Part shown: one piece after another, positions 3,930 through 53,520 of the stretch
How the letters are laid out: each line of letters opens with the position of its first letter
How positions within the stretch are numbered: the stretch's first letter is position 1
Assembly (NCBI RefSeq): GCF_000006565.2
Contig: NC_031473.1
Span: 1,619,903-1,683,902, forward strand
Direction: 5' to 3'
Length of the DNA: 64,000 nucleotides
Source of the DNA: Toxoplasma gondii ME49
Lineage: Eukaryota > Apicomplexa > Conoidasida > Eucoccidiorida > Sarcocystidae
Translations under genes and position numbers: made by a program
Notes under the pieces: generated by a model
What the model saw: only the letters and a program-made list of their open reading frames with translations
Told to the model about the DNA's origin: nothing
Database searches by the model: none

Positions 3930-6009
3930 CTGGAGATCAGAAATGTACAGGTGGACAGTGAGGAGATATCCGTCTGATGTCAAACACGAAGGCGGGAATG
4001 CGAGTTGGGTGGTGGGTTGGAGTTTGCTAGGGCGTGTGTCATTATAAGGAGAAAACCTTTTTTGCGAGGCGGATGAGCAGATGTCATTTTGACCGATTTT
4101 TGTGTTACTCGGAGTCAAAGGGCAGACATTTTCCGGTTTAATTCTTTTTTTTCCGAGACATAAAGGAAACTGAATGGCAGGAGGGTCTCTTCAGAATGTG
4201 TCCACCCACAGTGCCACAGCTGCTGTGGCCAGTTGTCGTACAGATAGAGCCTCTTGTTAGAAGCAGCAGATCTCATCAACATCTTGAAGAGACCTGGAAG
4301 CCCAGTAAACCTCTCAACGCCGGCATAGCTCGTATCACTCCTGACTGAGCACCTCCGCCCCACTGACGAGGGGACACTGAATCCAGAGGACACCGTACCT
4401 TACGAAACTTCAGAAAGAACTAGAATGTTATCACCTCTCGAGCAGGCCAGTAGACGAAGGCTGCAGGTGTTGGCCACCTATATTTTTCTCTGTTCGAGCG
4501 TTGACGCGACGGCCACAGTTCACTCTTGCGGATGAAGGACTGAGGTCGCGCGAATTCGGGCGTTGTCTTCGAAGAACGGCGTAATGGTTACTTGCACTGT
4601 GTAGTGGTACCATGACCTTTTTCAGTAGCCTCGTGCGTAAAACGAGTTTGTCTACTCCGTGAGTCGACTTCGTCTCTAGCACGACTTCGGGAGTGGTTAC
4701 ATCAGATCAGTCTATTGGCGTTCAGCTTCCTTCCCAGTGGTTTTGCCTTTCAGAGTTGTCCATTGCGATCTCCGAGTGCTTGTCACCTCAACTTCATGGG
4801 GAGGAGCAGCTCGGTCCGCGGTGCACTTTAGGGAGCCTATGATTGTCGGGACTTACTGTGCTGCACTAGGGGATTACAGAAAACACCGAGACCTTTGTTG
4901 TAGGACAGATAACCGGACATGTTTGTTTGGACCATTCAACAGATCGTCCTCACTTACGTGTTACCACCCCAGCAAAATAATAGTTCTTTCAACGTGCTTG
5001 CTCTAGCTTGATTAACTGGCGAGGCTAACGTCTATGAAAGCGACATTGGCGGAAGGTTCTGTCTGCTTCTTCGTAGTCCAAACAAACATGTCCGGTTATC
5101 TGTCCTACAACAAAGGTCTCGGTGCTTTCTGTAATCCCCTAGTGCAGTTTCTCAGTACTTCCAGTCCGAAATTCCAGAAAATGACTTGCCGTTTTCTGTA
5201 GAGATTCAGCTAGGTAGTCGAGAACAAGGGACTCGGACGACGACGATTCGACGATCCCTCAGTATTCGTGGCAATCTTCTTCGTTTACAACAATGGTTGG
5301 ACACAGGGGGCTCCAAACAGTGGCAGACCGCAAGAGGGGCCCCCCGTTGCTCGCGATGCTGTAGATCGCAGCCTTTGGTTCCGTGACACAGTACTGCCGG
5401 ATCTGGTACAGTTTCGTTGCAAGCAGTCCAGTGTCACCTCCTACGGAGAAACCGAAATTCTTCATTAAAATGCCATCATTTGTCAAGCTTTCCGAAGCGT
5501 CGCATCTCTTTTCCGGATGTGGGGCCTGGCTGATGTTTCCGATGGGGAAGCTTGTCCGTCTCGTTTGAAATGCCGTGAATCAAACTGTTGCCTCCAGATG
5601 TCCCTTGATCAAGTAAGGTAACACACATCCGTTCAGCTAAAGCATCTTCATTCTCAGCATAAACGCTCGAAGATGTGTCGCACAAAACGGCAAACGAAAT
5701 GATCGATGGGAAGCGAAAAACAGCCCGAGTAACCCTTGAATTCAACCTAGGCAGTGTGTTGCCCAGTCAGACGTTGAACTATCCCGATGCCGATCATTTT
5801 TTTAAACGTGAGTTCGCATCGTGCAATTGTTAATTTGGTCTAGACCTAGGAAGACAACGTTTGGTAGTGGCTGTGGACTGATACGGACTTTCCACGACGA
5901 GCTATTTAAGTGCGTGTCGCCGGCGACACAACGGGAGAGCAGTGGTCCTGTTTGGCATTCAAACGACTCTGCCGTGTGGTTCAAATCGTTGGGAGGCAGT
6001 TTCCACAAG
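3930..6009. other. Intergenic region with an inverted repeat, no gene recognised
   Basis: Apart from the inverted repeat at 4861-5147, I see no domain-bearing open segment. The distal part probably holds the promoter and 5' UTR of the CKK-domain gene. Confidence 0.5.
4861..5147. repeat. 72-bp inverted repeat, one mismatch, 143-bp spacer
   Basis: The left arm (4861-4932) and right arm (5076-5147) are reverse complements over 72 bp, differing at one position (AAACACC against AAGCACC when both are read in the left-arm sense). The 143-bp spacer has no repeat that I can see. The arms show no TA duplication or transposase, so a classical MITE is not proven. The structure could fold into a long hairpin if transcribed. 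A duplicated mitochondrial fragment is an alternative, because coccidian nuclear genomes carry many of these. Confidence 0.9.
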
Positions 6010-6294: not shown

Positions 6295-9200
6295 ATGGCA
6301 TCGCTAAAGTCCTTCTACGGTGCCAAGTCCTGTGCACGCGCCGGACGTCCGGTAGTGAGAACTTGTGGTTTTCAGCTTTATTCTCGGGATCGTTCTCTCG
6401 GTTCTGGAGGCGCCGGCAGCTGTGCAGGCGGCAGCCCTCCCCGCCCACTGGGGAACGGTTCACGTTTCATCCATGAACGGGGAGCGGAGAGTAAAGCTAC
6501 CTCTCCCGATTGTTCGCGAGCTAGAAGTTCGTCTTCGTCGTTTGCAAGCAACGGCGAGCAACAACAAATTGCGCACCGGGCGCGTGCAGAGTTCACAAAG
6601 GAGCTGTCAGATCGTGAGACCTGCGGGTTGCCACCGAACTATGAGGATGTAGAGGATTGGAATGACGCATTGTCGGCGTCTCGCTGGTCGACTCAAAGCA
6701 ATGGCGTTACGTCTGCCCGTGGCATCAATGGTGGTGACCGAAAAAAACTATTCGGGGTCGCTAGCAGCGAATGGAGAGATCACGCCCCTCTTTGTTCCGT
6801 TCTTGACTCGCCTTCACCGTTGGTCGCCGCACTTGAGGGCCACACGGCAGTGGCTGGTGGGTTCCCTGTAACACCGGAAAGCAGTACAGACTCAGTGGCA
6901 ACGGATAATGCTGAGTTTGAAGGACTCCGTTTCGTCAAACCATGCGAGAGTTTGAGCGGTCCGTTCTCTGCCACCGCTGAAATTGCGAATCTATCTCCCG
7001 ACTTCAACATCGATAAGTTTCTTGCTGGAACACCAAATATAATCGACGGAAACGGAACTAGTCGCCCTTCCTCCGACTCAGAATTGTTTGTGGGCAGCTA
7101 TTTAGAAGACGGCAAAACGTCGACTTTCATCGATGAACCAAAAGTTACGGCACAGCAGCAGACGAACGAGAAAAACTTGACTCTTCTGCAGCAAGATATT
7201 TCTGCTCTAGAGGACCTGGTGGAGCAGACAGATCGGAGACTGAAAGGACTGGGAGAACTCTCTCTCATAACGGAAGAGTCAAATTTTTCCGGTCCAACCA
7301 AGCAATCTCTCGAACGAACGCCTCAAAAGGATGCTGGAGAGCTTGAAGGCGTCACACGGCAGATGCCCAAATCTATTCAAGCGGATACGTCAGGAGTGGA
7401 GGTGTATCTGCCGCCTGCCAGCATACAAACTGACCAATCTTCACAAACGGATTTCGTTCCAGTTTGTCTTTCGCAAAAAAGAGACTCTCCGAGGAAGGAA
7501 GTGGGAGAGGAAGCCGAGGTAGGGCGTCAAGACAAACCTGTCACTGGAGGCGTTTTGACCAAGGGCAGAATGACACTGGCGAGCTTGAAAAGCGACCGCA
7601 ACCCAGGAGATGAAGGCAGATGTCACGGTGCATCCGGGGCACTCAACGGCGCTGGATATGAGCGGCATTGCCTCTCTAGGCCGGTTGTCAATGAAGGAAC
7701 GGGGACCATAAGATCTGATCCGCATGCGCGGATCGCCAATTTGAATGAGGCCCTTCACTACGGCGGCACAGCTTCCCGATTGCCAGGTGCGTCATTGCAG
7801 CATCCGTAGGAGGGCTATCCCCGTGACAAGGAAACATAGTCGTATTGCACCCGAACAAGCTGGACTACATAGCACCACAGACTCTCATCATAGAACACAG
7901 GCAACAACAAATATTATTGTCAGACTGTTTCACTGAACACACTGGAAACGGTGTTCAGAATCTCCGGTTGTCCTCAATTAAGCCGTGTCATAACTGTCTA
8001 ACTCGTCTGTCGTGTGCCGGCAGTGTTAACAGTCTTCATGAGACTGCAAAATTGGACGTGCACCATGCGGTTCTCTGTTGCTTGTTGCGAATGATCTGTA
8101 ACACCCCTCGATAAACTTTACTGCGTTTTTCTACAACAGAGGCACTTCGCAGAATAAATAAAGATCGACAAGGAACCAGATACGGCGAACTACTCATATC
8201 AGCCCCGTCCGGAGGCAGAGTCAACCTGAATCCTTGTTCTGTGTCCGCTCCCTCCGATCTGGCATTGCTTTCCGCCAGCCTTCAAAAACCGGACGTCGAG
8301 CAAGCCGAGCCTTCGGCTACCTACCCTCTCGAAAGGTCCAGGCAGGTCTATGCTGTGAGGTCTTCTCCGCGATCCCAGCCCCGGAGCTGTCCCGGTGGCT
8401 TCGTCCTACTAAACTCGAGGCCCAAGAGGAAATTTAAAAAAGTGGTATGGGTCGAGTCTGGCTCCACAGCGGAGAGCCGTGATGATGACGCGCAACATGG
8501 ATTGTGCTGCCACAGTGAAGATTCCTCGCATCGCTGTGCCTCGGGGTCCGACTACTCCTGTCATTGCCATTCCGGTGTCCCCCGCTGGCGGAGCAGCCGC
8601 GAAGAAATCCACCGGTGCCGTTCAGCGAGGGAAGGAACCTGTCGAGCTAGAACGGCGTTTCTTGACGTTGTCACAGGGGACTCAACGGACTATGCGCATC
8701 GCCTCCCTTCACTGTCAGTGAATGGCCGGATCAGTGAAGCAGTTGACAGGAGAAAAGCGGTTCTTCCTTTCCCGCAATCTCCTAGAAGATGGGATGAACT
8801 GGATTCGTTAGGATCCAGCTTCGCAGAGGCTGAAGCGCGTTGTGGTACTCAACAGAACGGACAGAATCGAAAGACAATACCCCTCAATGCCCCGTCAGAA
8901 ATGTGTGTCCTGTCAGGATACAACACTCGTCCTTCTGTCCGCGAAAAAGCACAGCGCATGCTCCAGCCATACCCATACGTCGAGGACTGGACAGACACAT
9001 CTTCGGCAGCTTCTGGATTTCCTCCAGACGGTCACTGGCAACCACACGGAACTCCGCTAGAAGATGGCATTGACTTGATCCAGGATCTTGTTGACAAAGA
9101 CCCTCGGTCTCGGTATTGCAGCAGAGAAGGCGTCCTGAACCAACCCGGAGGTACACACGCTGCGGGTGAGCAGCTTTACCACCACCGCGGACATCCATGG

Positions 9201-12200
9201 ACTGCACAACATTACGATTCTGAAAAGATCAAGGTAACCATCGATGCTTTATCCCCCCTCAGTCCTTGCGGATTATTTAGACCGTGGCAGATGCAAGGCA
9301 GTCGTCTGCGGTTTGAACGGGATCCAAGCGAGGATGAGCGTACCCGCTGCCGCCGCTGTGTGACAGGAACCCCTGGCGGTGATTTTCTGAAGCACAAAGC
9401 CCCACAGTGTGCCTCACCGGCAAAGGATGATTCACTGGACAAAGTGCCTTGGCTGCAGGTGTCCACCGGCACCTGCAGTGCAAGGGTCTGCCATGACACC
9501 ACACCGAAGCACAAGGAAGAAAACCAACGATCCGAAAGGGTCTCTCCAACCGTGAACATCACCGAACAAGGGATCCAGACTTCAGCACACAATGATCCAG
9601 ATCCCATCTGTTCCCCTTGTGATCACCATGGAAAGAAACAGGATGTCTCTAGTCAAGTGTCTCCGTCACGCAAGGATCTGGTGCCCAAAGGCACAGGCAG
9701 TGGAACGAGGGAGAATCCTGTCACGGCTGTGTGTGAGAGATCTAGCTCACAAGTTCAGAGTGTCCAGCCATCGCTTATGCACCTAACGAGCGAGACAGTG
9801 CACATGCCCAGGCCATTGTGTCACTCGCCTAAAGAAAAAGTCAGTCTGCTTCATCGCAACGATAATTCGGCCTTCGGACCTACATATCCGACCCAGCAAC
9901 CACGGAGGCTACGCCAATCGCCACGCCCGCTGCTCATGAACGACGCAGCCATCTGTACGTCCCCAGTTTTCCGCAGAGATATTGCTACAGGTGCTTCTCC
10001 AAGATCCATGGAACGGGATGGAAAGGACAGATCATCTGCCGGAGGAGTCGCCGCCACTCCCGCTCTGCGGCGGAATTCTACTCAGGCAGCGTTTGATTCT
10101 TCCCAAATCGAGGATCCATTTGACGTCCAGCAGATCTTAGCCCAAATTTCTCCATTGGGACGGGAGAAAACCCACTCAAACGGCAACTGTGAAAACGGGA
10201 ACACAAGTCAACCTTCAGGAGGCAACCTGGTGGAAAACAGTGGCAGCCATGTGCGTCAGCCAACTTCAGACGCGCAAGGAACCTTCAGTCTCCCAGCGAC
10301 AGAAGTTCTTGAAGTCGCTGAGGCATGCCATCAAACAGGTGAGACTGACTACAACTTTTTATAGAACTGGAAATGACTTACGGTAGGAAGTGAATTCTCC
10401 TAGCAGATAAAACAACAGAAGCTAATAATTCTCCCTTCTAGTAGTTGAGAACGAATAGGGATAGAGAAGCGCTAGTATATCTTTCAAAGCGTTGCTCGGC
10501 TTCAATGTACTCAGGGACAGGGAGAGGGGAAGAAGACCCACATGCGGTCCCGGTAGCTTTCGAAGCAACTTGTTACCATCTCAGTCCGCGCGCAAAATGG
10601 TACTAGCTGCCCCAGTGTCGTGCATGAGACTTGACTAAAGAGTGCGCTTTAGAGGATCCGCACCGGGACAGCATAAGACGTACCGAGAAAGAAACTCGAA
10701 GTGCAGAAAAACGAGTTTGATTCAGTGCACGGTATTTTTTCCTGTTGTCCTTCGCAGCAAGACTGCCTCGTAAACACTACTTTGTTTGCATACTTCAGGC
10801 AAGTCAAAGAGCAACGAAACGTGCGAAGAAATCATTAGCACACTGAACCAGACAATCAGGAGGATTGAAGGACGCACGCAGAGGCACGAGGACTCTCTAC
10901 CGTTGCCAGACAAGGTGACCAGGTAATTGTTATTTCTTGACTTCTCCAGGATTTCAAGGGATCCCATTAGTAGCTCGTGAAACACAGAAATACAAACGTA
11001 ACGCGCCCCATGCACACGGTGAAGAAGGCGGCTCAGGTAATTTTTACCGTTTGACATCTCAAGATAACCGACTTCCAGGTGTACATCTTGTTTCTCGTCG
11101 TTCGCACGATTGGGGGAGACAGTGGAAGACCGCAAAAGGTATACACACTTTTTGGCGTTTTCTGTGCCTGTATGTTCCTGAAAGGAAAGAGCCCGTCTGA
11201 TCCAGACGCAAATTCGAGAGTTCCAAAGCAAGAGTGTGGTTGTCAAGGCTGAGCACTCCAGTCTCTACGGTGGCTGCAGCTCCAGAAGTGTTCTGTGTTG
11301 TGCATCCTCATTTATTAACGCAGACAAGAGGACAGCGGCGGCATTTTCCTAAACAACTCCTCATGCTTGCGGGAGCTCTCAACTCCAGACAGATGTGGCT
11401 GTCTGGCTGTCTCCGAAGAGCCCCTGGGACTGGACACCCCGGCTTTGGCTGCACCGGAAGCCTCTTTGAGTCGCCACCACCTGAGTCTCGAGCTAAAGGA
11501 GGTCCATGAGATGCTGATAAAACTCATGGAGCCAGATGTTGAAACACCGGAGAACCTGTGCAGAAAGCATGCGCTTGATATGTCGTCTCCTCTAAACACT
11601 GCCGGCCACTTACCAACTTGCACAGAGCGACAGTGCGAATCGTTTCTGTTGCCGAATGCGGGACGCCGGCATAACTGTTTCTCTGCAGAAGACGTTCAGT
11701 TCTCGGGGCCTGCGGTGTGCACACATCCGTCGGCGAGGGCTTCACGACGCGCTGCTAGGCCAGCGGGCGCCGCGAAATCTGACGGGTGTGCAAGTCTGGC
11801 ATTCTTTGAAAGTCCTGTTCGAGTGGAAAGGGAGGCGCTAGGAGCGTGGGCACTAAACACTGCCCACAGCGACACAGAAGACGCTCTGAGGGCCTCGCTC
11901 GAGCGGCAACGCCATGGACGAGGGGGTCGGCCGTCACTCCTTTCGCGCGCGACAACGTGGGTTTTGGGAGAAAATCGAACGAAATCTCATGGGACCCATT
12001 CAAGTACGATCGTGTCGCAGAGATGCAGCGCCGCACGTTCCATAAAGAGAGCTCGTTCTATGCCAGTCCCCGCTGATCGAGGGGCGAGGCGAGGATGGAT
12101 ACATGAGCCTCGGCTGCAAAGAATGCGGCCTCCTGACGACATATGCGTTCGGCGAAAAGCTGGGGAGAGAAAACGAATTCCATCCCTAGAGGTGTTCTCA

Positions 12201-15200
12201 GCAGTTGCAGAGCAGCCAGAGATGGCTCGGCTGCGACCAGCAGAGAAAGCACTCGCGTGTAAAAGAGCGGTCCCGCCGATCCGACATAACAACAAAGGTA
12301 AGAGGAAACCCATCCAAACACAGTGCGTACAGGAACCTAAAAGGCGCCCAGTAGTAGGTAGGGTGATTGTTTACCAAAACAGGAAATGAAAATGGTCAGG
12401 GCGCGCCACCAGTTTCCCCTTTGCTGTAAGGAGGTGTTGCAAACTCTAGGACACTCGAATGTGCCTGTCCACCGAGGTGTCGCTTTCACTTTCAGAAGAG
12501 CTTCGAGTTTTCTTCCCCGAAGGTAGCATCTCGACTGCGAGTACTGCTTCGGATCCTGGAGATTCCGGCGTACTAACGGAAAAATCTCAGAGCTGGGACA
12601 GTGTCCAAGGCCTGGAGTCGCGATTCCCAGAAGAGAGGCAGGTTTTCTCGCCAGGATGTTATCCCGCGAAGTCGTCGTCACTGCGAAGCACTTCGAGGGG
12701 TCGTCTCGAAAGGCATGCGGGGCGACACAAGCCCCCCGACTTGGCTGATGTCGTGTGGCAAGAAGGTTCAGCGGCCGATCTAAGATACGACGAACGGAGA
12801 GGTCGTGGTAGTTTGAGTCTCTGTCGGGAGAAGCCTAAACACACTTGCTCGCGCAGTTCGTATTCTCGGACAGAGGAGCAAAAACTCCCCGGACAGACAG
12901 CTGGAGGATTAGGAAGACAGCGGCGCCAATTCACACCAAAAAGTGCCAGCTTGCGGCCATCCTTGGAACATGGACAGAATAGCGCAGAGGCATCCAGGAC
13001 AGCACAGTCCAAGTCTTGTTGTCTCTGCGGGGTCAGCAAAGAGTATTCGACTCCTCTGAAACCGATTCGATCGGAGGAAAGCGAGTTTCTACGGAAAGCC
13101 ATGTCTTGTGACGCCAGAAAACCCTCTGACGGCTTCGGCGCTCATTGCCGCCGACAAAGCCCCGAGGCAACATTACTGCGTGGCTCCTCGTCTACCGTTC
13201 GAATGCATGGTGTGCAGGGTAACCTGCGCCACGGCTCACTAAGGCCGCAGACACTAAATCGGGAAGGCAGAACACTTTCGCGGGGATTCTCGGGGCAGTA
13301 CTGCCGGCAAAACCTTTCGGGTGATCTGGCTGGCGTGCAGTCGACACGGCAAGCGCAGAAGAATGTTCAGGAGGAGGGAAACCACTCCTACCAAAACAGG
13401 CTTATTCCAGAAGGAGGGATGGAACCTAGAGAACTCCGTGGGTGTTCCCGGCCAGATGTGGCTACCATGCCGCGGAAGCCAAGCACACCATCGAGGAACT
13501 CGTCAAGATCGACAAGATCCATTTCGAATACAGGGAAAAGTCTACAGATGCTAAAACAGTCTTTACGTTATACATACACCAGGGACAGTACCGGTGAAAA
13601 GGTTCGTCTCTCACAGGCAAAGGAAAGGCCAATCGTCTGCAGCGTGTCCCATGCTGAGAGCCAGACGTCGCGTCCGCACACGATTATTTCCGGTTCGGCA
13701 ATAAGCATAGATTTGAACCCACGAGTCTCCCCTCAGCCCCCGCAGTCGTTTGATCAAAGTGAAGAAATGTCTAACCGCTGCGCGGACACTTTCCCTGAAA
13801 AACGTCCAAGCCACAGTGACCCTCATAGGGGAGACAAACACCCCACGTGTTGTTCCAGTTTACGAAACACAGAGCTTGCAAAAAAGGACGTCGAAGTTAA
13901 TGCTGGCTTTGAGCAGGAGCAGCCAAACGTGGGTCCGCAAGAAATCGCCTCCAGTATGCTTGCGGAAGGCGTCAGGAGTGCGTTGAGTGACCTTGACTCG
14001 TCAGCGGAGGGTCTGCATGCATCGGCTGCAGAAGTCTTGCCGCCAGAGGGCGACACCCTAGGAAGCTTTAGAAGCAGCTCTGGCGCAGAGAAACCAGCTT
14101 TAGCCCCCGAGCCCCGAGTTTATCCGGTGAGAAGTATGCGAGCACGGGTGCAGGCAAGTGTGAGGAAACGGAAGAGCCAAGAAAGAGTGCGACGATCTTT
14201 CCGATTCGAAGAAAGCGACAGCACACCGGGCGCAAACGGCGTTCTAACTGAAGAACATGTGTCGGGCGTCACAGGCGCTTCCTTCGAAAGCTCGGACGCG
14301 AGAATAATCCAAAGAAACGAAGACGAAACCCAGCAAAATAATGTGCTACGAGCTTCTCCTAAAAGAATTAGTGCGTGGGGTGTCCGAGAAACATCCGTGG
14401 AGTTGAAGAGCTCTCTTGTCGACGAAGAAAGCGATGTGGCAAACAAGAGACCCGCTGTGAACTACCGGCAGGATGTGGCTGTCGGTCGCAGTCCTCCGTC
14501 ATCGCTTACCCCGAGTTGGTGTTACGGCCAAGCCGTATCGCTGTCCGGAAAGACTCCTACTTCTGTCGAGTTGGACGCAACAGAAATCTCCTCATGCGAT
14601 TCAGAGAGCGACGGAAGTGTTGGCAGGGAGGCAGGTATCAGCCGTCAGTGCGTCACGGTGGAACCACGGAGAGGCATCCGGTTTAAAAAATGCAGTTCAT
14701 TCGGCCAGAGTGGTGAGGAAAAGTGCGAGGCAGAGCCCACTGAAGAGTCTAGCATGGGCGCTCTCTGGAAGGAGAGCTCGCGGTCGGCGAACTCCGTTCT
14801 CGAGATTGACATGCGGGAAACAGCCACAGAGGAGAAACAGTAAGGCATCCTCCTATAGCATTTCGTCAGTCAGGAGGGAAGAAACATTTTTCTGGAATTA
14901 AAGTGTTCTATTTTACGTGCAGGTGTACACAGAAGTTTGTGCGTGTGTCATAGTAGGTACAGCCTCCTGTTAACGGGCTGAAGAGTCTCTTGCCGTGGGG
15001 GGATGCGCAAACATGAGATACGAGTGTCTAGCAAGGCATGCACGTTACCGTAGATACACCTGGAAGAATGCAACCGCCAGCGTGCAAGGGTTTTCTCTGG
15101 TGAAGATAATGAGAAGACGCTTGCGCGCTTTTGCTGCCCAGAATGCCTGCCCGTCGTGTGCGGCTCTGGCCATCCGTAGGAAGCCGAAATACCTCCTCTG

Positions 15201-16746
15201 AGTGTCGTCCTGTTGTTCCATATTCAAAATGTAAGAAACGACAAAGCTGCAGTAGCAGGACGAAATCTCCAGTGCTGGAGTATTCGCAATGAGCATCACC
15301 GTCCTCTGCCGGTGATACCGGTGATACTCGGAAGAGGCTTCGACGTTTCTTTCTCTCCTTTCGCTGTGGGTTTCTATCGCCCTTGACATCTGAACGGTCA
15401 GAAAGCTGCGCGAAAGGCGGCAGAAGGACTTCTCCAACTACCTCTCCCGTAGATATGGAGAGTCTTACGGAAGCTTATCAGCGGAATCACCCGATGCGTC
15501 ACGCAGCCAGACACCGGCACCTGGCCATCTCGAGACCTGTACTTCCAGGACGAGCCCCGAGAGGACCAGAGTGCTTGGTGAATTCGAGGTCCCGTACCGC
15601 AGCTATCCGCTTTCCCCAGAAAAAACAAACAAGCGTTCAACGCACCCCCTCATGAGGTCGTTTGGCTGTGCATCCAATCGGGCAGTAATTCTCAACGCTC
15701 TACAACATGCTTGTCTTGCTGGTGAGACGTGCCAAGTTTCGTAGCACCACGCGACCAGTCTTGAGATCGGAAACACTGGCATTTTTCTCCATCACGGATC
15801 CGACTGGTGTTGGGGTCCTTTCATATCCGGCCAATGTCTAGAATCATAGACTGGCCACCGAACATCGCTTTTCTTTTGTTTTTCAAAGACGGCCGTGTGG
15901 CAAACTTCTTCCGATTTTTTTCAGGGGAAGTTAACCGGTCAAGACGTGAACGTCTGATTGCCTGTTTCAAGGACCAGTGGGCAGAGTGTCGGGTCTTTAT
16001 CATTCTGTTGAAAGGCCCTGGCCAACGTCATGAACTTCGTGCACTGTATGCTCTCGATGCGGAAAGAGGCTTTGTTAAAGTGAGAAATCACATCCTTTCC
16101 ATTAAAAATAACATCGGGTACATTTCGAGTGGTCGCTAATGCCCCGAAATCTCCCACGGTGGCTTGGCCCCAGTTGTTTCCAGCACCACGCCGCTCGTTC
16201 GGATTTTGCTAGAGAGCTGCTCCAGAAAATCGACCTCTTTGTGTCTCGTAACATTCTGATACCCTACTTGCGCAGTTATTGGCACATGCTCACAATTCTC
16301 CACGCATGTGAATTTCCCACCCTTCATCGCCCATTGAGCATATGCTCTTTTCAGGCGCTGTCGAATTCAAAACTTACTGTAGGATTTTTCTCCACTTCTC
16401 TGCGACGCCTGCGTCCTTTACTGTTGTACTTCGTTTGTCGCACCCTGATCGTTTACTGGGTTCCCCCAGATTTCTTTTCCTCAACTTCCAAGCTTCATCA
16501 ATGTCTAAGGGGTGTGTCCGCTCAGCTTTTTCTGTGTCTCTCTGCAAACTTCAGGTGGCTCAAGTGTATCCCGCCCCTCAAGTCCTCGAAGAAGCGATGA
16601 TCGAGAATGTGTTTCGCTACGACTGTGCGACAAAACGGTTTAGACGCATAGAAGGTGCAAAGAGTCTGAGCCCCCTGACTGCCGCAGTGACAGTTCAACG
16701 GGCTCTGCCACCGGTAGCCGCACCGCGCAAAGTCCTGTACATCTAG
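6295..16746 (+). CDS. Giant CKK-domain protein (CAMSAP/Patronin-like microtubule minus-end binder)
   Basis: Eight exons join with consistent phase: 6295-7786, 8140-10338, 10799-10922, 11324-12297, 12496-14839, 15402-15721, 15925-16079 and 16555-16746, giving about 2,599 residues. The last three exons build a CKK domain (about residues 2462-2580). Signature parts are SNRAVILNALQHACLAG, then FIILLKG and ELRALYAL, then MIENVFRYDCATKRFRRI. These match in order the CAMSAP/Patronin CKK fold, which binds microtubule minus ends. The remaining ~2,400 residues are Ser/Arg/Gln-rich and apparently disordered, with a predicted short coiled coil near residues 295-322 and several QT motifs. I see no N-terminal calponin-homology domain, which animal CAMSAPs have. 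The start could instead be the ATG at 6010. The CKK assignment is strong; its role at parasite microtubule-organising centres is inference. Confidence 0.85.
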
Positions 16747-18377
16747 GATTAGAAAGTCCTCTATTTTCCTTTCTAGTTCGCCTTCTGAAACAGTGGGGGC
16801 GTTACCCCAGTTACCGCACCAGTCTGAACGCTGTACACCGATGCTAGACACGGCAGAAACACCGTCTTTATTCGCACTCTTGAAAAGCCGCTGCGTTCTC
16901 CGCCTTTTGCAGACAGAACACACGTACCGAAAAACACATGAGGTTCCGGTGCCGTCCACTTTGAAGTCCCCAGCAGTTCCGATACGTCGCCGGTAAACGT
17001 TTGCCCGGCTCTCCCTGCCGGCATCGCAGATAACGCCATATAATATGTCTACGAGTCACTGCGGCTTTATCGTGGCAATTATTCGAGAAAGTTCTTCCTT
17101 GCTTGCACCAGATCGACCGACAAAGCACCCGCTGTTTCTCACATCCTGGTCTAGCCGCTGGGCGGGTCTTGCGTGAGACACGCATCATTAGCCCAGGAAC
17201 CTGAAAGTTAACAACCGCTTTGGAGTTGTCCGTACATATGTGTGACAAATATCACCCAATCTTGAGATTTTTCTAACGCTGTCGACGCGCTTCTGCTTCC
17301 TTTCTGAGGCTGAGAGAAACCCTGCCGGGAAAAAGTGACTCCCAGAAGCCCGGAAAACCGCGCACGCAATCGACTGCACGGACAAGCACCGTCGGACCAG
17401 TTAATTCAGTCCATGGACCTTCTTGATAGAGATGGAAGCGCTTATCTGTTTCGCTGCGTAACACGACTTTGTCAAAGTCTGTCAAAATCGAAACTTCGTT
17501 TGCCAAAAGAGGCTGGGAGGAGAAAGGAACCAGAGCGTCCAGTCTTGCCACGAAAGGCACACGAGGTGAACTGCGGTATTAGGTCCACTTCGCGCGTGTG
17601 CCTTCAACATGGCTGGTAGATGTTACCGCGAGAAGCTATTCGCGACACTCGAACTGGACACCTCCGAAAAGAAGCTGCACAATCAGTTATCCGAAAGAAG
17701 TGTCCGCAAGAGATTTTCTCGTAAAAAAGAGCCGTCACTTGTGCGATGAAACTGCGGGGTTTTGTTCAGTCGAAGTCCGCGCCTTGCAGGGCTGGACTCG
17801 CAGCCACTTCAGGGGGTACCTTTCGACGTTTATCGACATAAGCAACGACCCAATGAGATTTGTGGACCGATCTTTTGTTTTTAAGGAGATGAGAGAGGTT
17901 TCCGTCGATGTTGAAAGTTTGTTTCGCCTCCCGTGGGTAGAGAAACATCCATTGAGAGGCCGATTCAGATGCCGCGTTACAGAGTGCCAGCTTTTCTCGA
18001 CGTGCGCCGGTCCTGCCGTATTTTTAAGTTCCTTCTTCTTTCCCCTCGTTATCAGAGAATTCGTTCGCTTTCTCTCGTGACCTTCTGCCGTCTTCTTGTT
18101 TTCTGGACGACTCTCCCCACCACACGTTTGGCAGAGAATGCCGGACTCTCGTCTGTGTGTACAAGTGGGCATCAGCGACCGTGTAAACCTGTCACGTGTC
18201 TATGATGAGTCTATTTTCAGGTGGACCTGGTCTTTCATCTGTGTGTTCTGAATCGAAATTCATCTTATTCCGTTGGTGCGGCCACACTGGAGAGCGGACT
18301 TACCCAGGATCCGTTCCGCAGCTCAACTGCTTTTCCTGAGGATGTCGTGCTTCCGCGCAGATGGATGCAAGTGAAAG
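16747..18377. other. Intergenic, no gene recognised
   Basis: This holds the presumed 3' UTR of the CKK gene and the promoter/5' UTR of the helicase. Open segments on either strand lack domains and splice consistency. Confidence 0.5.
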
Positions 18378-20639
18378 ATGCGTTCGGCGGCGCTCCTGTC
18401 TCGCCTGCGGGTGCCCCTCCGGAGCATTTCGGTTGTGTTTCTTTTCTCTTTCGCTTCCCTCGCCGTTCAGACATCCTTCTGCGCAGTTGCCCGTCCCAAT
18501 GCCAGCCACGCGACACTTCGTGGCTTCGCGTCCACTTTCTCTTCTTTCTCGGTACCCTGGTCACCTGCACCGTGTTTGACGGATTTCCAAGCCGAGACGC
18601 CTCCTAGACAGTATGCTCCCTGGAGTGTTCCCGCATTTGGGGTTCTGGAAGTTCCTCAGAATTCCCTGTCTTCTTCTCGAGCCCGTTTCCGGCGAGTTTC
18701 GGCGTCCCCGGCTTCCATTCACAGCGAAGATAGTGAATCTGCAAAGACGGCTTTGAGGTTGAGATCCGCTTTTTCCCTCCCGCCAGGCGCACCCTCGCCG
18801 GTCGTAAGAAGTCCCGTCACGACGACACATGTGCACTCCCATTTCTCCAAGTCACGGCTTCCTCTCCATCCACCCACAGTCAACAGAGGTTGCTGTCTCG
18901 CCTCCTCCGTCTGCGGTTTGTCTTCTTTTCCATCTCGGGCCATCCCTCGCGCATCTGGTTGCAGCTGTTTATCGGGGTGCGCCACCCAGTGCGAACGCGC
19001 GGACTCACTGCTACGCGCCTCGAACTTCAACAAGAAAGCTCTTCACGGACATCCACTGCGGAGTGCGACGGGAGACCACTGCTCGGCCCAGGAGAGACTG
19101 GCCAAGAATGGTTGTTTGCCAGACCAAAAGCCGTCTGACGCGGTGGACGCGTTCGTGGAAGACAAAAAGCCCCGAATCCGCAGGTCAACAGAGAAAAGCG
19201 CCTCTCAGGCGTCCAGTTCTCTCCCCACTTCTCAACCCGTTGACTCGACAGCAACACCTTCTCCCCACTCTTGCCATTCGTCGCCGTGTCTCCCTGCCTC
19301 GAAACAGCCTTCTCGGCTGTCCTCTCTCCGCAGAAGCCCCGTCTCCTCTCCTCTGTCTCCTCAACACGTGACTCTCTCTCTCCTTCCCTCTCTCCCCACG
19401 TTCGCTGGGTTGCCTCTCCCCCCCTACCTGTCGGCAGCGCTCGACGCCCAGGAGATCTCTGCCCCAACGGGAATTCAGCAGACAGCGCTGGGGCCTCTTG
19501 CAGCCGGCGAAGACTTGCTTCTCCACTCCGAGACAGGCAGCGGCAAAACCTTCGCGTACCTCCTTCCTCTCCTCCACTGGCACCACCACGCCAACAATCC
19601 AGAACCCACCTCTGGGGGCAACGCGCATGCAGAGAGTCTGTTGCGAAACGTCTCGGGTGTATGTACACCCCAAGCAGCAGCCGGGGGGAGGGGCGGGCAG
19701 CGCGGGAAGGCGGCGCGGCCGCGTCGAGATGCCAGCAAAGGAAAGCGACATGACGCAGGTCGAGGAGCTGGAGATGCATGCGAAGAAGAAGCTCTCTTGT
19801 CGGAGAGATACTTGGCGCACGCAGCGTGTCTCGACGCTCCAGAAGTGGCGAGAGCTCTGAGACGAGCAACAGGCTGCTCTCTCATCGTTACACCGACTCG
19901 GGAGCTAGCGGTTCAAGTGGCCCACGAAATCTACATGCTTCTTCGCACGAACTTTTTCCTTTCAGAGAGCAACGGTCAAAACGAACGGGGCGAAGAGGAC
20001 GCTGGCCTTCTTGAAAAAGCTCTCTCAGCGTTTGAAGCGTGCAGACAACGCCTAGAGGCGGCAGAATGCTCTGCGAAGAACCTCAAAGACTCCGCTGCCG
20101 CTGCTGCTCGCAGGGGAGAGACAGGCGTTGCCCCTGCATTGCTGGCGCGCGCCAGTCGAGCAGAAACACAAGCTGAGGAAGCTCGAGCTCACCTCGTTAA
20201 CGCCCGCCTCGGCCTTGCACAGGTCAGGGGCGAAGGCAAGCGCCCTCGGCTTCTTCTCGTCTTGGGGGAGCCGCTAGCCAGTGCGTGCGACGGAGAAGAA
20301 AAATCGCAGACGGGGGAGAGGGAACCGGACAAAGGAGACGACGAAAGAAACGTGAACCTGCGACGGCATGGCGAAACAAGAAGATCTGAAGAACTGCATG
20401 CGCGAGGCGACAAAGGAAACGCCGCAGAATCGAACGAGGCGCGATTCTTTGACACAGAGACGAAGCACCTCCCATCTTGGGCGAAAGAAAAGTGGGCGCA
20501 GTGAAACAGACAAGAAGCAGACGGAGAATCGCAGAGAAGAAAACTGAAAGGAACGCAGAAGAAATAGCAACAGCCGAACGCTTTCCGAGACACATGCCAA
20601 CGCGCATATCGGTATTCAAATGCTCTGATTATAGTGCTG

Positions 20640-49200: not shown

Positions 49201-49301
49201 TCTTCTATCCGTGCCGGACGGCCCTTCAAAACCGGCGAGACGCCGGCAGGTGGATTTTCTCTTCACTTTTTCCCGGTTTGTAGACAGAAGCTCGCTTCAG
49301 C
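46298..49301. other. Divergent intergenic region, no gene recognised
   Basis: It lies upstream of both the CFAP97-like gene and the KH-domain gene and should hold both promoters. No domain or coherent exon chain is visible. Sequence just upstream of 49302 is C/T-rich, consistent with a 5' UTR. Confidence 0.5.
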
Positions 49302-52300
49302 ATGGCAGCAGCCGCCACTCTGCTCGCTGTTTCGCCACCCGGCGATTTCTCTCATTCTAAATACAGTTTTTGCTCTGTTTCACACTACCCACCCCAGCCC
49401 TGTCGGCCCCGCTCTTTGGACTGCTTCTCGCCGTGCCCCTCTCCGTCCTCTTTCGCTGCTGTTAAACAAGTTCGCCCCTGTCTTTCGCCGCAGTACGAAC
49501 AGGGGAAGTTCGACACGGAGCGTGCGTCGCGACTTCCGCGGACAGCTTTCCACGCGGGAACGGAGAAGTCTTGCTCGGTGAGACGCGCCTGCAGAGATTT
49601 CTTTTCGCTCGAATGCGAGACTCGCGAGGAATGCTCGCTTGCTCGCAGCACGCCCGCGATCCCCTCGTCTGATCTGGCGTCTTCGTCGCCGCCTGTCTTT
49701 CCCGGTGTCTGTACAGCTGCACGGTCTGGATGTCCCTGTTCTCTCGACAGCGGCGCAGTACCTCAGTTCGCCCTTTTTTTGTCTTCTCTTCGCATGCAAA
49801 GGGACTACAGGAGACCGTTGTTTTCCGACCCCGCTCCGGGTGCCAGCGACAGTTCGAGTGCATGCATCCAGGAGTCTTGTTTGAAGACGGAGAAGCGGCA
49901 GTCTTCGCTTCACCGTGGTCTTCCTCCACCTCAGCCTCTGCTCCCGAGACAGCGATGCGCGGCAGGACAGCACAAAGTAAGAGAGGCGAAGGAGACAGAG
50001 GATACGAAGGGTCGCGAAGAGAAAGACAGGAAAGACCGCCAGAGTGGAGGCGGTCAAGATCGAAGAAGAGATAGTGACAAGCATCGAGAACGAGGCCGAG
50101 GAAGTGACAGAGGCGACCGTGGACAGGCAAATCGCGACGACAGTCGAGGAGACGAGAAGGATCGCGACAAGAAGCAGGGCAGCAAGAAGAAGGAGAGCAA
50201 GAAGAGGGGGGAAAGCAAGAAAAGTCGACGCCGCGAGGAGTCGAAGAGCGATCGTGAATCGCGCTCGCGGAGCAGACACCGGTCCTCCAGTCGCCGGCGA
50301 GAGAAGCGCAAGCGGGAAGAGGCAAAGGGCGAGGTGAATGGCTCTACACAGAAGGAGGAATCTCGTCGCCGCTCTTCTGTGATGTCTGTGGAGTCCCTCG
50401 CATCGAAGAAAAAGTCTCGCGAGCGCTCCCAAGACAGGAGAGCGAAGAAGCATCGCCACTCGAGTCGAGACAGGAAGGCGAAGAAGCACAGACACCACAA
50501 CAGTAGCCGGCGTCATCGGTCTCGGTCTTCCTCAGACTCGGAAAGGCGTCGCTCGAGCAGCCGTAGCTCGTCCCCGCCGCGTCGCACCGCGAAGAACACA
50601 ACAGATCCTACACGTAACTCGGAAAACGATCCCTTCCCGGCAGATCTCCAGGGCCCCTGCTTTGTCAAGGTGTTGCCTCAGGCTCGAGACCCTCCCGTCG
50701 TCCTTGGTATCGACAACCGCGGCGTGTTGAACCTCGCGAAGGCCCACGGATGCAAGCTGAAGCTGTCGGCCGTCTCTGATCTGTACCCGCAGACTGAGCG
50801 TCGCTTTCTCCTCGTGTATGGTGCCGAGATCGGCGCGTGCGTCGCGGCTCTCAAAGGCTGGGTCGCAAAGACTGCAGACGCCTCGGATCCGAAGCGCAGT
50901 GCAGCCATTACCTTCCTGGTGCCCGACGCTGCGATGAGTTCCGTCGAGGTGCCTGATGGAGAGCGGAAGGCGCGCACAACGACACTCGAGGACCTTCGGA
51001 AACTGTGTGGCTCGCGTGTGAAGATCTCCTCCCGGCGCGAGATGAAGAAGGCCCACGGCCGCGAGCGCTTGGTCACGCTCCAAGGGTCCATTGAGAGCGT
51101 GCAGAGCGGTGTTGAGGCACTCGCGACTGCGCTTCAAAGCTTCCCCGAGTTGCGGGATTACATGAATGTGCAGTATGTGGCGTACTCGCAGGAGAGACAG
51201 AGACGGAAGCGGTCGCCGTCGCCGTTGCCGACGATTCCACGCGTGGTGATTCGCGAGCCGTCGATGCCGAGCGCAACGGTCCCCGGGCTTCAGTTCCAGC
51301 GGGCGCTGCAGGGCGTGAGCGTGCAGGACGAGCTTGTCAAGATCACGAATCTGCGAGGGATTCTGGACCCGACAACGCCCCATATGCACGGACCCGCGTA
51401 CGCGAAGATCGTGATTTCGGATCTCGTTACGACGCTGCTCCTCGGAACGACGACGAAGGAGCCGAACCACTCTTGTCCGCTGCGGCTGATTGAGGCGACC
51501 TTCAAAGTCGCCGCGAAGATCATGGACCCTGAGAGTCCAGGGATTCTCGAGCGCGTTCTGGTGCTCTCTGGAGAGCCGTCGGACGTGGACAAGGCCACGC
51601 TGGCGGTCCTCGAGCAGGTCTACGCTGCATGCATCATGGCGGGGCAGCCTTCCCAGGTGACTTGGCGAATGTGTGCGTCGAACAGTGCAGCCTCGCTCAT
51701 CATCGGCACGGGTGGACACCGCGTCAAGCAGCTCCGGACGCTGAGCAACACGCGTATCCAAATCAACACGCGAGACAACGTCCCGAACATCGACAGGTTC
51801 GAGCGCGTGATTGCCGTGACCGGCAGCTTCGACTCCGTCGTGAGCGTCACCAAGGCCATGCTTCCCTTCATGCATGCAGACACGAACCACGCGTCCCATG
51901 TCCACCAGTGCTACGGAACAGGTCGGAAGCTTGAGATGCCCGACTGGGTTGAGGGCGTCATTCACCGCGACGGGATGGACGAGGAGGCGTGCCGGCGGCC
52001 GCCGGTGCCGGACAAGCGGGAAGTCGTTCTCGAGGGTTCGTGCTTCATGAAGCTTCTGATCGACAACGGTCTTGCGAACGCGCTGATCGGCGAAGACAGC
52101 GCAAACATCCAGAAGCTCTCCGAGGCCACCCAATGCAACATGAAGTTTGCAGATCCAGACAACGTTTTCCCCGGCTGCCCCGGCGAACGCATTTTGATGC
52201 TCGCGGGCTCCGGCGATGCCATGAACGCCGCGACCATCGCTATCATCGAAAAGTGCAAGGAAGTCCACCCCAATCTCTCCTACGACCAAATGTACGGAAA

Positions 52301-53520
52301 AGTAATCATTCCCCAGAGCTGCTGCTCCGCTGTCGTCGGCCACGGGGGTCTGAAGATCAGAGAAATCCGCGACGCAACTCTCACGCGTGTCGAAATCTCG
52401 AAAAAGGGCCTTCTCACCTCCGAACGCCTCGTCACCATCTTCGGCATGCCCCAGGGTGTACATACAGCTCTCATCACGGTGTGCGGCCTTATCCAGTTCG
52501 ACCCTGCTGTCAAAGCCTTCCTCGAGGTCGTTTACCCGCCCGAGGTTCTCGAGCAGCAGCGGAAGCTTGAGGAAGAACGGCTGTCTGCAAATGTCATTGG
52601 AGCCGTCATGGAAGGCGTCAACGCGGTCATCAGCAAAGTCGGCGGAGACGAAGCTGCTCAAGCCGCTCTGAAGAAACTCCAGGAAATGCAGCGAGTGAGA
52701 TACTAGGGTCACCACACACAGGAGGTGCAGGTGCGCCGGTGGCTGCGTTGTTTTCCGTGTCAAAAACGAGTTTCTAGGTCTCATCCCCTTCTCGAGTCCA
52801 AATCACTGCCCTTGAATGCATGCTCGGCGAAGTTCATCCCCTCTTCCTCTGGTCTTACTTCCCGCCGTCTCACCCGCGAAGAGACCCCTGCGTAATCCGT
52901 ACCCGTCACGAAGTTTTCGTGCATGCGCCATTGTGTGGATGTCGACGAATGTTGTTTTCGACCTGCGCCTTCGCCCACCTTTCTCTCGTGCGTCTTTTTC
53001 GTTTTCTATCACCTCTTTGCACGCGTTTCGAGATTCACTGTTCTCTGTCTGTGTCTCTGTCCTGTTCCTCTATTATGTCGTTCAGGCCGCAGCACTTGCA
53101 GCTGGAGAAGCGCCTCCGGAAACTTACGACTTCCGGGGGCCTCTGGGGCCGATGGGGCAGATACGCCAAGACAACGCGGCGGGGCCGGACTACTCAGCTG
53201 GTATTTCCTTCGTGCCTGCTTCTGGGGCTTCCAGGCCCTCGCCTCCAGGCCAGAGTTTGTTTCCCCCGCCTCCTCCGCCCCCTGGGGCTCCGCCGGGGGC
53301 CTTGCCGAGCGACGGGTCTGCTTTCTTCCCGCCTCCAGAGCCACCTGTCCCTCCGTTGTCTCGCCAGGAGCTGAGACAGAAAATCCTTGATGCCTCACTG
53401 AACAGAGTGGCGACGGCAGCTGAGGCCATGCATGCGAACCCTGGGTATGCAAATGCGTATCCAGACGACGATTTAGAGGAAGATCCGTCGCTCGCGGGTC
53501 TCATGGACGAGAAATTCTAA
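49302..53520 (+). CDS. RS-rich multi-KH-domain RNA-binding protein
   Basis: Exon 1 (49302-52694) and exon 2 (53086-53520) join in phase 0, giving about 1,275 residues. If the intron were retained, the protein would end at 52706 with 1,134 residues. Residues about 240-430 are an Arg/Ser/Lys-rich domain like those of splicing factors. KH-type repeats follow: degenerate near 454 (VLGIDNRG) and 698 (LLLGTTTK), canonical near 785 (IIGTGGHRVKQL), degenerate near 912 (LIGEDSANIQKL), canonical near 996 (VVGHGGLKIREI). Only two repeats keep the GxxG loop that contacts RNA. Exon 2 adds an Ala-rich helix, a proline run and an acidic C-terminus ending in MDEKF. Splice signals (CGA|GTGAGA and TCTATTATGTCGTTCAG) and helix continuity support the join. 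Likely role: nuclear RNA processing, by inference. Confidence 0.88.

What the first reader, a model, noticed from the sequence alone, without database searches (positions are those of the whole stretch)
15402..16746. A CKK (CAMSAP/Patronin) minus-end-binding domain in an apicomplexan giant protein
Three small exons, joined in phase, rebuild the whole order of the CKK fold: SNRxxIxNALxxxCLAG, a strand FIILLKG, ELRALYAL and ENVFRYDCATKRF. CKK domains decorate microtubule minus ends in animals. Coccidia organise microtubules at the apical polar ring, conoid and spindle poles, where minus-end factors are poorly known. The protein has about 2,400 disordered residues and no visible CH domain, so its architecture differs from animal CAMSAPs.
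Basis: partly seen in the sequence, partly recalled or inferred. Interest (0 to 1): 0.85.

Follow-up and report, generated by a model that had tools for sequence, protein, structure and literature searches.

The report
Toxoplasma-type CKK microtubule-end protein
A very large, mostly disordered protein of a Toxoplasma-type parasite ends in the domain that in animals grips the minus ends of microtubules, which makes it a testable candidate for holding the ends of the parasite's own microtubules.

Summary
Exons 15402-15721, 15925-16079 and 16555-16746 (+) join in phase to a CAMSAP_CKK domain (Pfam PF08683, E 1.3e-21, 77.3 bits, cut-off 27). A 2,645-aa Besnoitia besnoiti protein matches my 8-exon, 2,599-aa model from about residue 160 to the end. 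A deposited 145-aa T. gondii fragment already bears the Pfam name but lacks the first part of the domain. The CKK is far better kept than the rest: 99 of 125 residues identical, against 681 of 2,250 aligned. No CH or CC1 domain was reported.

So it is a CKK-domain protein without animal CAMSAP architecture. Microtubule binding is very likely; minus-end preference is open: the human selectivity residue N1492 is kept, but loop 3 is two residues longer than human, and the lattice-binding Naegleria CKK also has a longer loop 3. Best guess: a scaffold that caps or tethers minus ends, perhaps at the apical polar ring. Transcript, location and function are untested.

The parts
6295..7786 (+). Exon 1 of my model (residues 1-497). 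The start codon and the first ~160 residues are uncertain; the B. besnoiti relative matches significantly only from 6778 on
   Evidence: model; tblastn with P0001: 6778-7794, E 1.4e-24
7135..7269 (+). Conserved helical-looking island, residues 281-325 (NEKNLTLLQQDISALEDLVEQTDRRLKGLGEL), possible coiled coil (by eye, no predictor run)
   Evidence: 50-53% identical to B. besnoiti per 30 residues, against 30% overall
8140..10338 (+). Exon 2 (residues 498-1230)
   Evidence: (8238-10154, E 6.5e-15)
8940..9092 (+). Conserved short island, residues 765-815, DWTDT.SAAS..PPDG.WQP..TPLE; candidate partner-docking motif (inference)
   Evidence: up to 63% per 30 residues
10799..10922 (+). Exon 3 (residues 1231-1271), short helical-looking segment
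   Evidence: B. besnoiti counterpart in the alignment; not found by tblastn
11324..12297 (+). Exon 4 (residues 1272-1596)
   Evidence: (one gapped match over 11421-14840, E 2.8e-37)
11436..11558 (+). Best-conserved island before the CKK, residues 1310-1350 (SRHHLSLELKEVHEMLIKLMEPDVETP), amphipathic-helix-like by eye
   Evidence: up to 77% identity per 30 residues
12496..14839 (+). Exon 5 (residues 1597-2377)
14079..14201 (+). Basic conserved island, residues 2125-2165 (PVRSMRARVQASVRKRKS); possible second microtubule contact (inference)
   Evidence: up to 63% per 30 residues
15402..15721 (+). Exon 6: linker with conserved RRQKDFSNYLSRRYGE, then start of the CKK (SNRAVILNALQHACLAG). The residue matching human CAMSAP1 N1492 is the Asn codon 15694-15696 (counted by hand)
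15925..16079 (+). Exon 7: core of the CKK. R1528 equivalent is Lys (codon 16011-16013), R1535 equivalent is Arg (codon 16038-16040), with 8 residues between them (counted by hand)
16555..16746 (+). Exon 8: end of the CKK (ENVFRYDCATKRF) and C-terminus, stop 16744-16746
   Evidence: 25.5 bits, 28.1 with its frame, in the whole-genome scan
15667..16695 (+). CKK domain span by Pfam (model residues 2467-2583), interrupted by introns 15722-15924 and 16080-16554
15834..15924 (+). Intron stretch read as coding in the deposited T. gondii MAS model P0002 (starts at the ATG at 15834), which therefore lacks the first part of the CKK

Best explanation
An apparently single-copy gene of a Toxoplasma-type coccidian encodes a protein of about 2,600 residues whose C-terminal CKK domain wedges between two protofilaments, at the tubulin intradimer interface. 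The ~2,460 mostly disordered residues before it act as a long tether and scaffold, with short conserved motifs that recruit partners. Its most likely work is to hold and stabilise microtubule minus ends not capped by gamma-tubulin complexes, at a parasite organising centre; the apical polar ring is the first place to look. Shown here: domain identity, gene structure, a near full-length relative, no recognisable CH or CC1 domain. Inferred from homology: microtubule binding. Inferred with less support: minus-end preference. Guess: the apical polar ring.
For: CKK at E 1.3e-21 over nearly the full profile and PDB CKK chains down to 3.8e-13. CKK strongly kept between two genera while the rest drifts: 99 of 125 against 681 of 2,250 aligned residues identical. 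The asparagine matching CAMSAP1 N1492, whose change to Ala raises affinity and lowers minus-end selectivity (PMC6868217, passages), is kept in both coccidian proteins, and so is the arginine matching R1535. Residues 2462-2599 are strongly basic, pI 9.9. [quoted passage not shown]
Against: Loop 3 holds 8 residues between the R1528 and R1535 equivalents, against 6 in human and 7 in Naegleria by the paper's numbering, and R1528 is Lys. Loop 3 is among the parts displaced in NgCKK, which lacks minus-end preference. No CC1 or CH domain of animal CAMSAPs was reported. Other apical polar ring proteins already have an anchoring role: loss of KinesinA with APR1 detaches cortical microtubules. No location, expression or phenotype data were seen. 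The words CKK, CAMSAP, patronin or spectrin-associated, as far as asked, do not occur in four papers on parasite organising centres or apical structures. I do not know this gene's ToxoDB number, so it could have been localised or screened under a number I would not recognise.
Confidence: 0.5

Rival explanations
1. The CKK binds the microtubule lattice without end preference, as NgCKK does, and the protein is a lattice-binding MAP or linker (for instance between subpellicular or spindle microtubules and the cortex).
For: NgCKK shares the fold, has a loop 3 one residue longer than human and binds along the lattice (PMC6868217). Loop 3 here is longer still, and R1528 is Lys. The basic conserved island at residues 2125-2165 could add lattice affinity (inference).
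Against: The N1492 and R1535 equivalents are kept. By sequence the domain scores nearer to CAMSAP3 (3.8e-13) than to NgCKK (7.7e-5), though the 34-residue loop 4 insert of NgCKK may lower that score: only about 60 residues of it were aligned. I could not check the NgCKK residue at N1492 because its letters were not printed.
Confidence: 0.35
2. The protein works chiefly in the flagellated male gamete, stabilising minus ends of axonemal central microtubules, and has little role in dividing asexual stages.
For: Mammalian Camsaps with Wdr47 and Katanin stabilise minus ends of central-pair seeds (PMC8490363, start of abstract in a listing). Apicomplexan microgametes bear flagella (PMC8705618, passage).
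Against: No stage-expression data either way. Katanin p80 con80 (PF13925) gave no match in the genome, but no control genome rang, so that is uninformative.
Confidence: 0.1
3. The real product is the short 145-aa reading deposited for T. gondii MAS, starting at the ATG at 15834; the long gene upstream is a separate gene.
For: That model is in the public databases.
Against: It lacks the first part of the CKK and scores 30.6 against 54.7 bits with the animal-only profile, and 50.7 against 77.3 bits in Pfam. In B. besnoiti one 2,645-aa protein carries both parts, and the residues around the 15721/15925 junction (FGCASNRAVILNALQHACLAGEVNR) are identical there.
Confidence: 0.04

Closest known systems
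B. besnoiti BESB_045710 (P0001), 'CKK domain-containing protein' in UniRef
   Same: 2,645 aa, C-terminal CKK, same conserved islands; 59% identity over the last 230 residues
   Different: Its first ~210 residues have no significant match in the window; about 30% identity before the CKK
T. [quoted passage not shown]
   Same: 113 of 114 residues identical from exon 7 on, same 16079/16555 join
   Different: Starts in intron 6 and so misses the first CKK segment
Animal CAMSAP1/2/3 and Patronin
   Same: C-terminal CKK; 34% (CAMSAP3) and 28% (CAMSAP1) identity in the domain
   Different: No CAMSAP_CH (PF11971, PF25532) and no CC1 (PF17095) reported here; loop 3 longer by two; roughly 2,460 residues of other sequence instead
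Naegleria gruberi CKK (PDB 6quy, 6qve)
   Same: CKK outside animals, with a loop 3 longer than human (PMC6868217)
   Different: Weaker sequence match (7.7e-5); NgCKK loop 4 is 34 residues longer than human; parent protein not compared

Membership tests
CKK-domain proteins (PF08683) | CKK domain above the curated cut-off | tested here: met
   77.3 bits, cut-off 27, E 1.3e-21; B. besnoiti relative 64.7 bits
CKK-domain proteins (PF08683) | Microtubule binding | not testable with these tools
   Inferred from family and basic charge only
Animal CAMSAP/Patronin | CKK at the C-terminus | tested here: met
   Pfam match ends 16 residues before the C-terminus
Animal CAMSAP/Patronin | N-terminal CH domain (PF11971 / PF25532) | tested here: not met
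   None reported at E up to 10 in P0001 whole, nor in window exons 1, 2, 4 and 5 scanned one by one (exon 3, 41 residues, not scanned; the first exon is uncertain). PF11971 0 of 1 in the whole genome, but no control genome rang
Animal CAMSAP/Patronin | CAMSAP_CC1 coiled coil (PF17095) | tested here: not met
   Not reported in P0001 or the scanned exons; many of the 120 animal-type hits listed carry it, not all
Animal CAMSAP/Patronin | Minus-end selectivity residue N1492 | tested here: met
   Asn kept, codon 15694-15696. Position fixed by the N-to-A difference of chain 5m5c from 5m54, with the mutant described
Animal CAMSAP/Patronin | Loop 3 contacts R1528 and R1535 with human spacing | tested here: inconclusive
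   R1535 kept, R1528 is Lys, 8 residues between instead of 6
Animal CAMSAP/Patronin | Minus-end preference on dynamic microtubules | not testable with these tools
   Needs TIRF
Animal CAMSAP/Patronin | Calmodulin, spectrin, katanin, WDR47 partners | not tested
   Katanin con80 scan uninformative
NgCKK-type lattice binder | CKK fold without minus-end preference | tested here: inconclusive
   Lengthened loop 3 fits; kept N1492 and the nearer match to CAMSAP3 speak the other way

The most novel reading that the evidence does not exclude
This is the missing minus-end factor of the coccidian cortex: a CKK scaffold that takes over the minus ends of the subpellicular microtubules at the apical polar ring once gamma-tubulin leaves, with a rebuilt loop 3 tuned to parasite tubulin.
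Probability: 0.2. Interest if true: 0.85.

Novelty: new member of a known kind. Interest (0 to 1): 0.5.

Why it matters
How apicomplexan subpellicular microtubules are held by their minus ends is only partly understood: in 2022 the mechanism was called largely unknown for Plasmodium (PMC9719560, abstract), and in T. gondii gamma-tubulin is reported at the ring only transiently (PMC13387612, introduction). A CKK protein gives a single-gene candidate that can be tagged, depleted and assayed in vitro. [quoted passage not shown]

Tried and rejected
Short 145-aa gene model: rejected as the main product. CH or CC1 domain hidden in the long part: none reported in P0001 at E up to 10, nor in exons 1, 2, 4 and 5 (exon 3 not scanned). 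Upstream first exon: tblastn of the B. besnoiti protein, run without low-complexity filter or composition correction, found no significant match before 6778 (its query file also held P0002), so the N-terminus stays open. Second CKK gene: one match in the whole genome, of 2 candidates scored, but exons 6 and 7 of this very gene were not reported there, so a paralog cut by introns could be missed. Distribution in other alveolates: the third protein search scored 7,996 candidates and gave 2,058 proteins, of which 120 were listed; those named are mammals, birds and an alligator, others are unnamed metagenome entries, and no alveolate is among the 120. So presence in Eimeria, Cryptosporidium, Plasmodium or chromerids was not tested. 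Katanin con80: uninformative. Structure prediction: not obtained (below). Literature: the 2017 CKK paper PMC6134180 is not held; its content I only recall. Searches for print on a Toxoplasma or apicomplexan CKK or CAMSAP listed no title or abstract that describes this protein. I looked at passages of PMC6678760, PMC8795688 and PMC13373224, which hold both a CKK/CAMSAP term and Toxoplasma: none speaks of a parasite CKK. Other listed papers were not opened for this, and most subscription papers and preprints are not in the library.

Full report
WHAT WAS CHECKED. The three exons (15402-15721, 15925-16079, 16555-16746, + strand) have AG and GT borders and join to one open frame ending in TAG at 16744-16746. 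The joined 221 residues hit CAMSAP_CKK, PF08683, at E 1.3e-21 and 77.3 bits against a curated cut-off of 27, covering profile positions 9-119 of 119. The three unspliced frames reach 18.9, 18.8 and 28.0 bits. Against the Protein Data Bank all 7 sequences matched at E up to 10 are CKK chains: CAMSAP3 (best 3.8e-13), CAMSAP1, and the Naegleria CKK at 7.7e-5.

IS IT MORE THAN CHANCE. I built a profile from the CAMSAP1 and CAMSAP3 CKK alone and scored GT-AG joins within set ranges around each intron, one junction varied at a time. The second was best of 215, with a donor six bases earlier at 54.6, so score alone does not settle that donor. Of 1,000 shuffles of the last 222 residues, 628 gave a score, at most 6.3 bits, and 372 gave none.

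GENE MODEL. Walking upstream by eye along in-phase GT-AG introns gives eight exons and 2,599 residues: 6295-7786, 8140-10338, 10799-10922, 11324-12297, 12496-14839 and the three above. Support comes from Besnoitia besnoiti BESB_045710, 2,645 aa, the only protein found at E up to 0.001 with the last 230 residues of the model (E 4.0e-75). By tblastn, without filters, it matches the window from 6778 to 16743, with significant pieces in exons 1, 2, 4/5, 6, 7 and 8 and none for exon 3. In the pairwise alignment the junctions at residues 2377, 2484 and 2536 lie in well-matched sequence, those at 1230 and 1271 have recognisable counterparts, and those at 497 and 1596 lie in poorly conserved, gapped sequence. 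The first ~160 residues and the start codon are not supported by this relative.

A second entry, a 145-aa T. gondii MAS protein named for the Pfam family, is the only one found with the bare domain at E up to 0.01. It is identical at 113 of 114 residues from exon 7 on and uses the same 16079/16555 join, but begins at an ATG inside intron 6 (15834) and so lacks the first CKK segment. Hence the window is T. gondii or a very close relative (inference; the held genome is 65.28 Mb), and the public model of that strain looks cut short.

ANATOMY. The CKK is the only Pfam family reported for the B. besnoiti protein at E up to 10. In window exons 1, 2, 4 and 5 nothing is reported except a chance-level DUF5320 (E 3.3) in exon 1 (exon 3, 41 residues, was not scanned). 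CH domains, present in most of the 120 animal-type relatives listed, and CC1, present in many of them, were not reported. A whole-genome scan for CAMSAP_CH gave 0 of 1, but no control genome rang, so it says nothing about other genes. The CKK scan of the genome gave one place, exon 8 of this gene. Residues 2461-2585 are 99 of 125 identical between the two genera, against 681 of 2,250 aligned residues before them. That long part is above a TOP-IDP disorder threshold over 79% of its length, the CKK over 17%. Short islands stand out: residues 281-325, 765-815, 1310-1350, 2125-2165 and 2378-2400. They are what one expects of docking motifs; no partner is known.

MICROTUBULE CONTACTS. In human CAMSAP1 the change N1492A raises affinity and lowers minus-end selectivity (PMC6868217, passages). 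Crystal chain 5m5c differs from 5m54 by one N-to-A in the aligned stretch, which fixes the position. Both coccidian proteins keep that Asn. R1535 is kept and R1528 is Lys. Between them lie 8 residues, against 6 in human and 7 in Naegleria by the published numbering (R678, R686). NgCKK binds the whole lattice, and its loop 3, loop 8 and C-terminus are displaced relative to human. So the domain very probably binds microtubules, but sequence alone cannot say whether it prefers minus ends.

HOW IT PROBABLY WORKS. The C-terminal CKK grips the groove between protofilaments. The long flexible part reaches to an anchoring structure through its short motifs. In T. gondii 22 subpellicular microtubules have their minus ends at the apical polar ring (PMC12819142, passage; PMC13387612, introduction), and gamma-tubulin is reported there transiently in early daughters. 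A CKK protein would suit that vacancy. Against it, KinesinA and APR1 already have an anchoring role there. Spindle poles and the male gamete's axoneme are other minus-end sites. None of this has been tested.

WHAT IS KNOWN. Database entries already name the domain. In the open-access library, searches for CKK, CAMSAP or spectrin-associated with Toxoplasma or Apicomplexa listed no title or abstract on this protein. Three papers with both kinds of term do not speak of a parasite CKK in the passages seen, and four papers on parasite organising centres or apical structures lack the CKK/CAMSAP words asked for. I do not have its ToxoDB number, so work under that number would have escaped me. A 2019 review says that CAMSAP proteins occur only in animals (PMC6678760, passage). 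The Naegleria work already shows a CKK outside animals (PMC6868217, passages and sections 6, 7 and 9). From memory, the 2017 structural paper also surveyed CKK across eukaryotes; I could not open it.

VERDICT. A real, well-supported CKK domain in a giant coccidian protein with non-animal architecture. It is a new member of the CKK kind, already labelled in part by automatic annotation, with no function described in what I could search. The interest lies in the direct test that it offers for minus-end control at the apical complex.

Noticed in passing
window 4861-4932 and 5076-5147: Inverted repeat with 72-nt arms, 99% complementary, 143 nt apart, upstream of exon 1; a DNA search of the held genome with 4850-5150 found only this place and its own two arms. 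Unexplained: a hairpin-forming stretch or the relic of a small element.
   Followed up: partly
window 18375-20501 (+): Open frame of 709 codons with part of a DEAD-box helicase domain (E 1.6e-10), downstream on the same strand.
   Followed up: no
window 49284-52703 (+): Open frame of 1,140 codons with three KH-domain stretches (E 2e-36), so probably an RNA-binding protein; a 756-codon open frame without a Pfam match lies antisense to it at 50535-52802.
   Followed up: no
window 15834-16079: The deposited T. gondii MAS protein P0002 reads intron 6 sequence as coding: a gene-model error or an alternative start in public data.
   Followed up: yes
window 8940-9092 and 11436-11558: Two short islands (DWTDT.SAAS..PPDG.WQP..TPLE and SRHHLSLELKEVHEMLIKLMEPD) are far better conserved with Besnoitia than their surroundings; candidate docking motifs of unknown partner.
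   Followed up: partly
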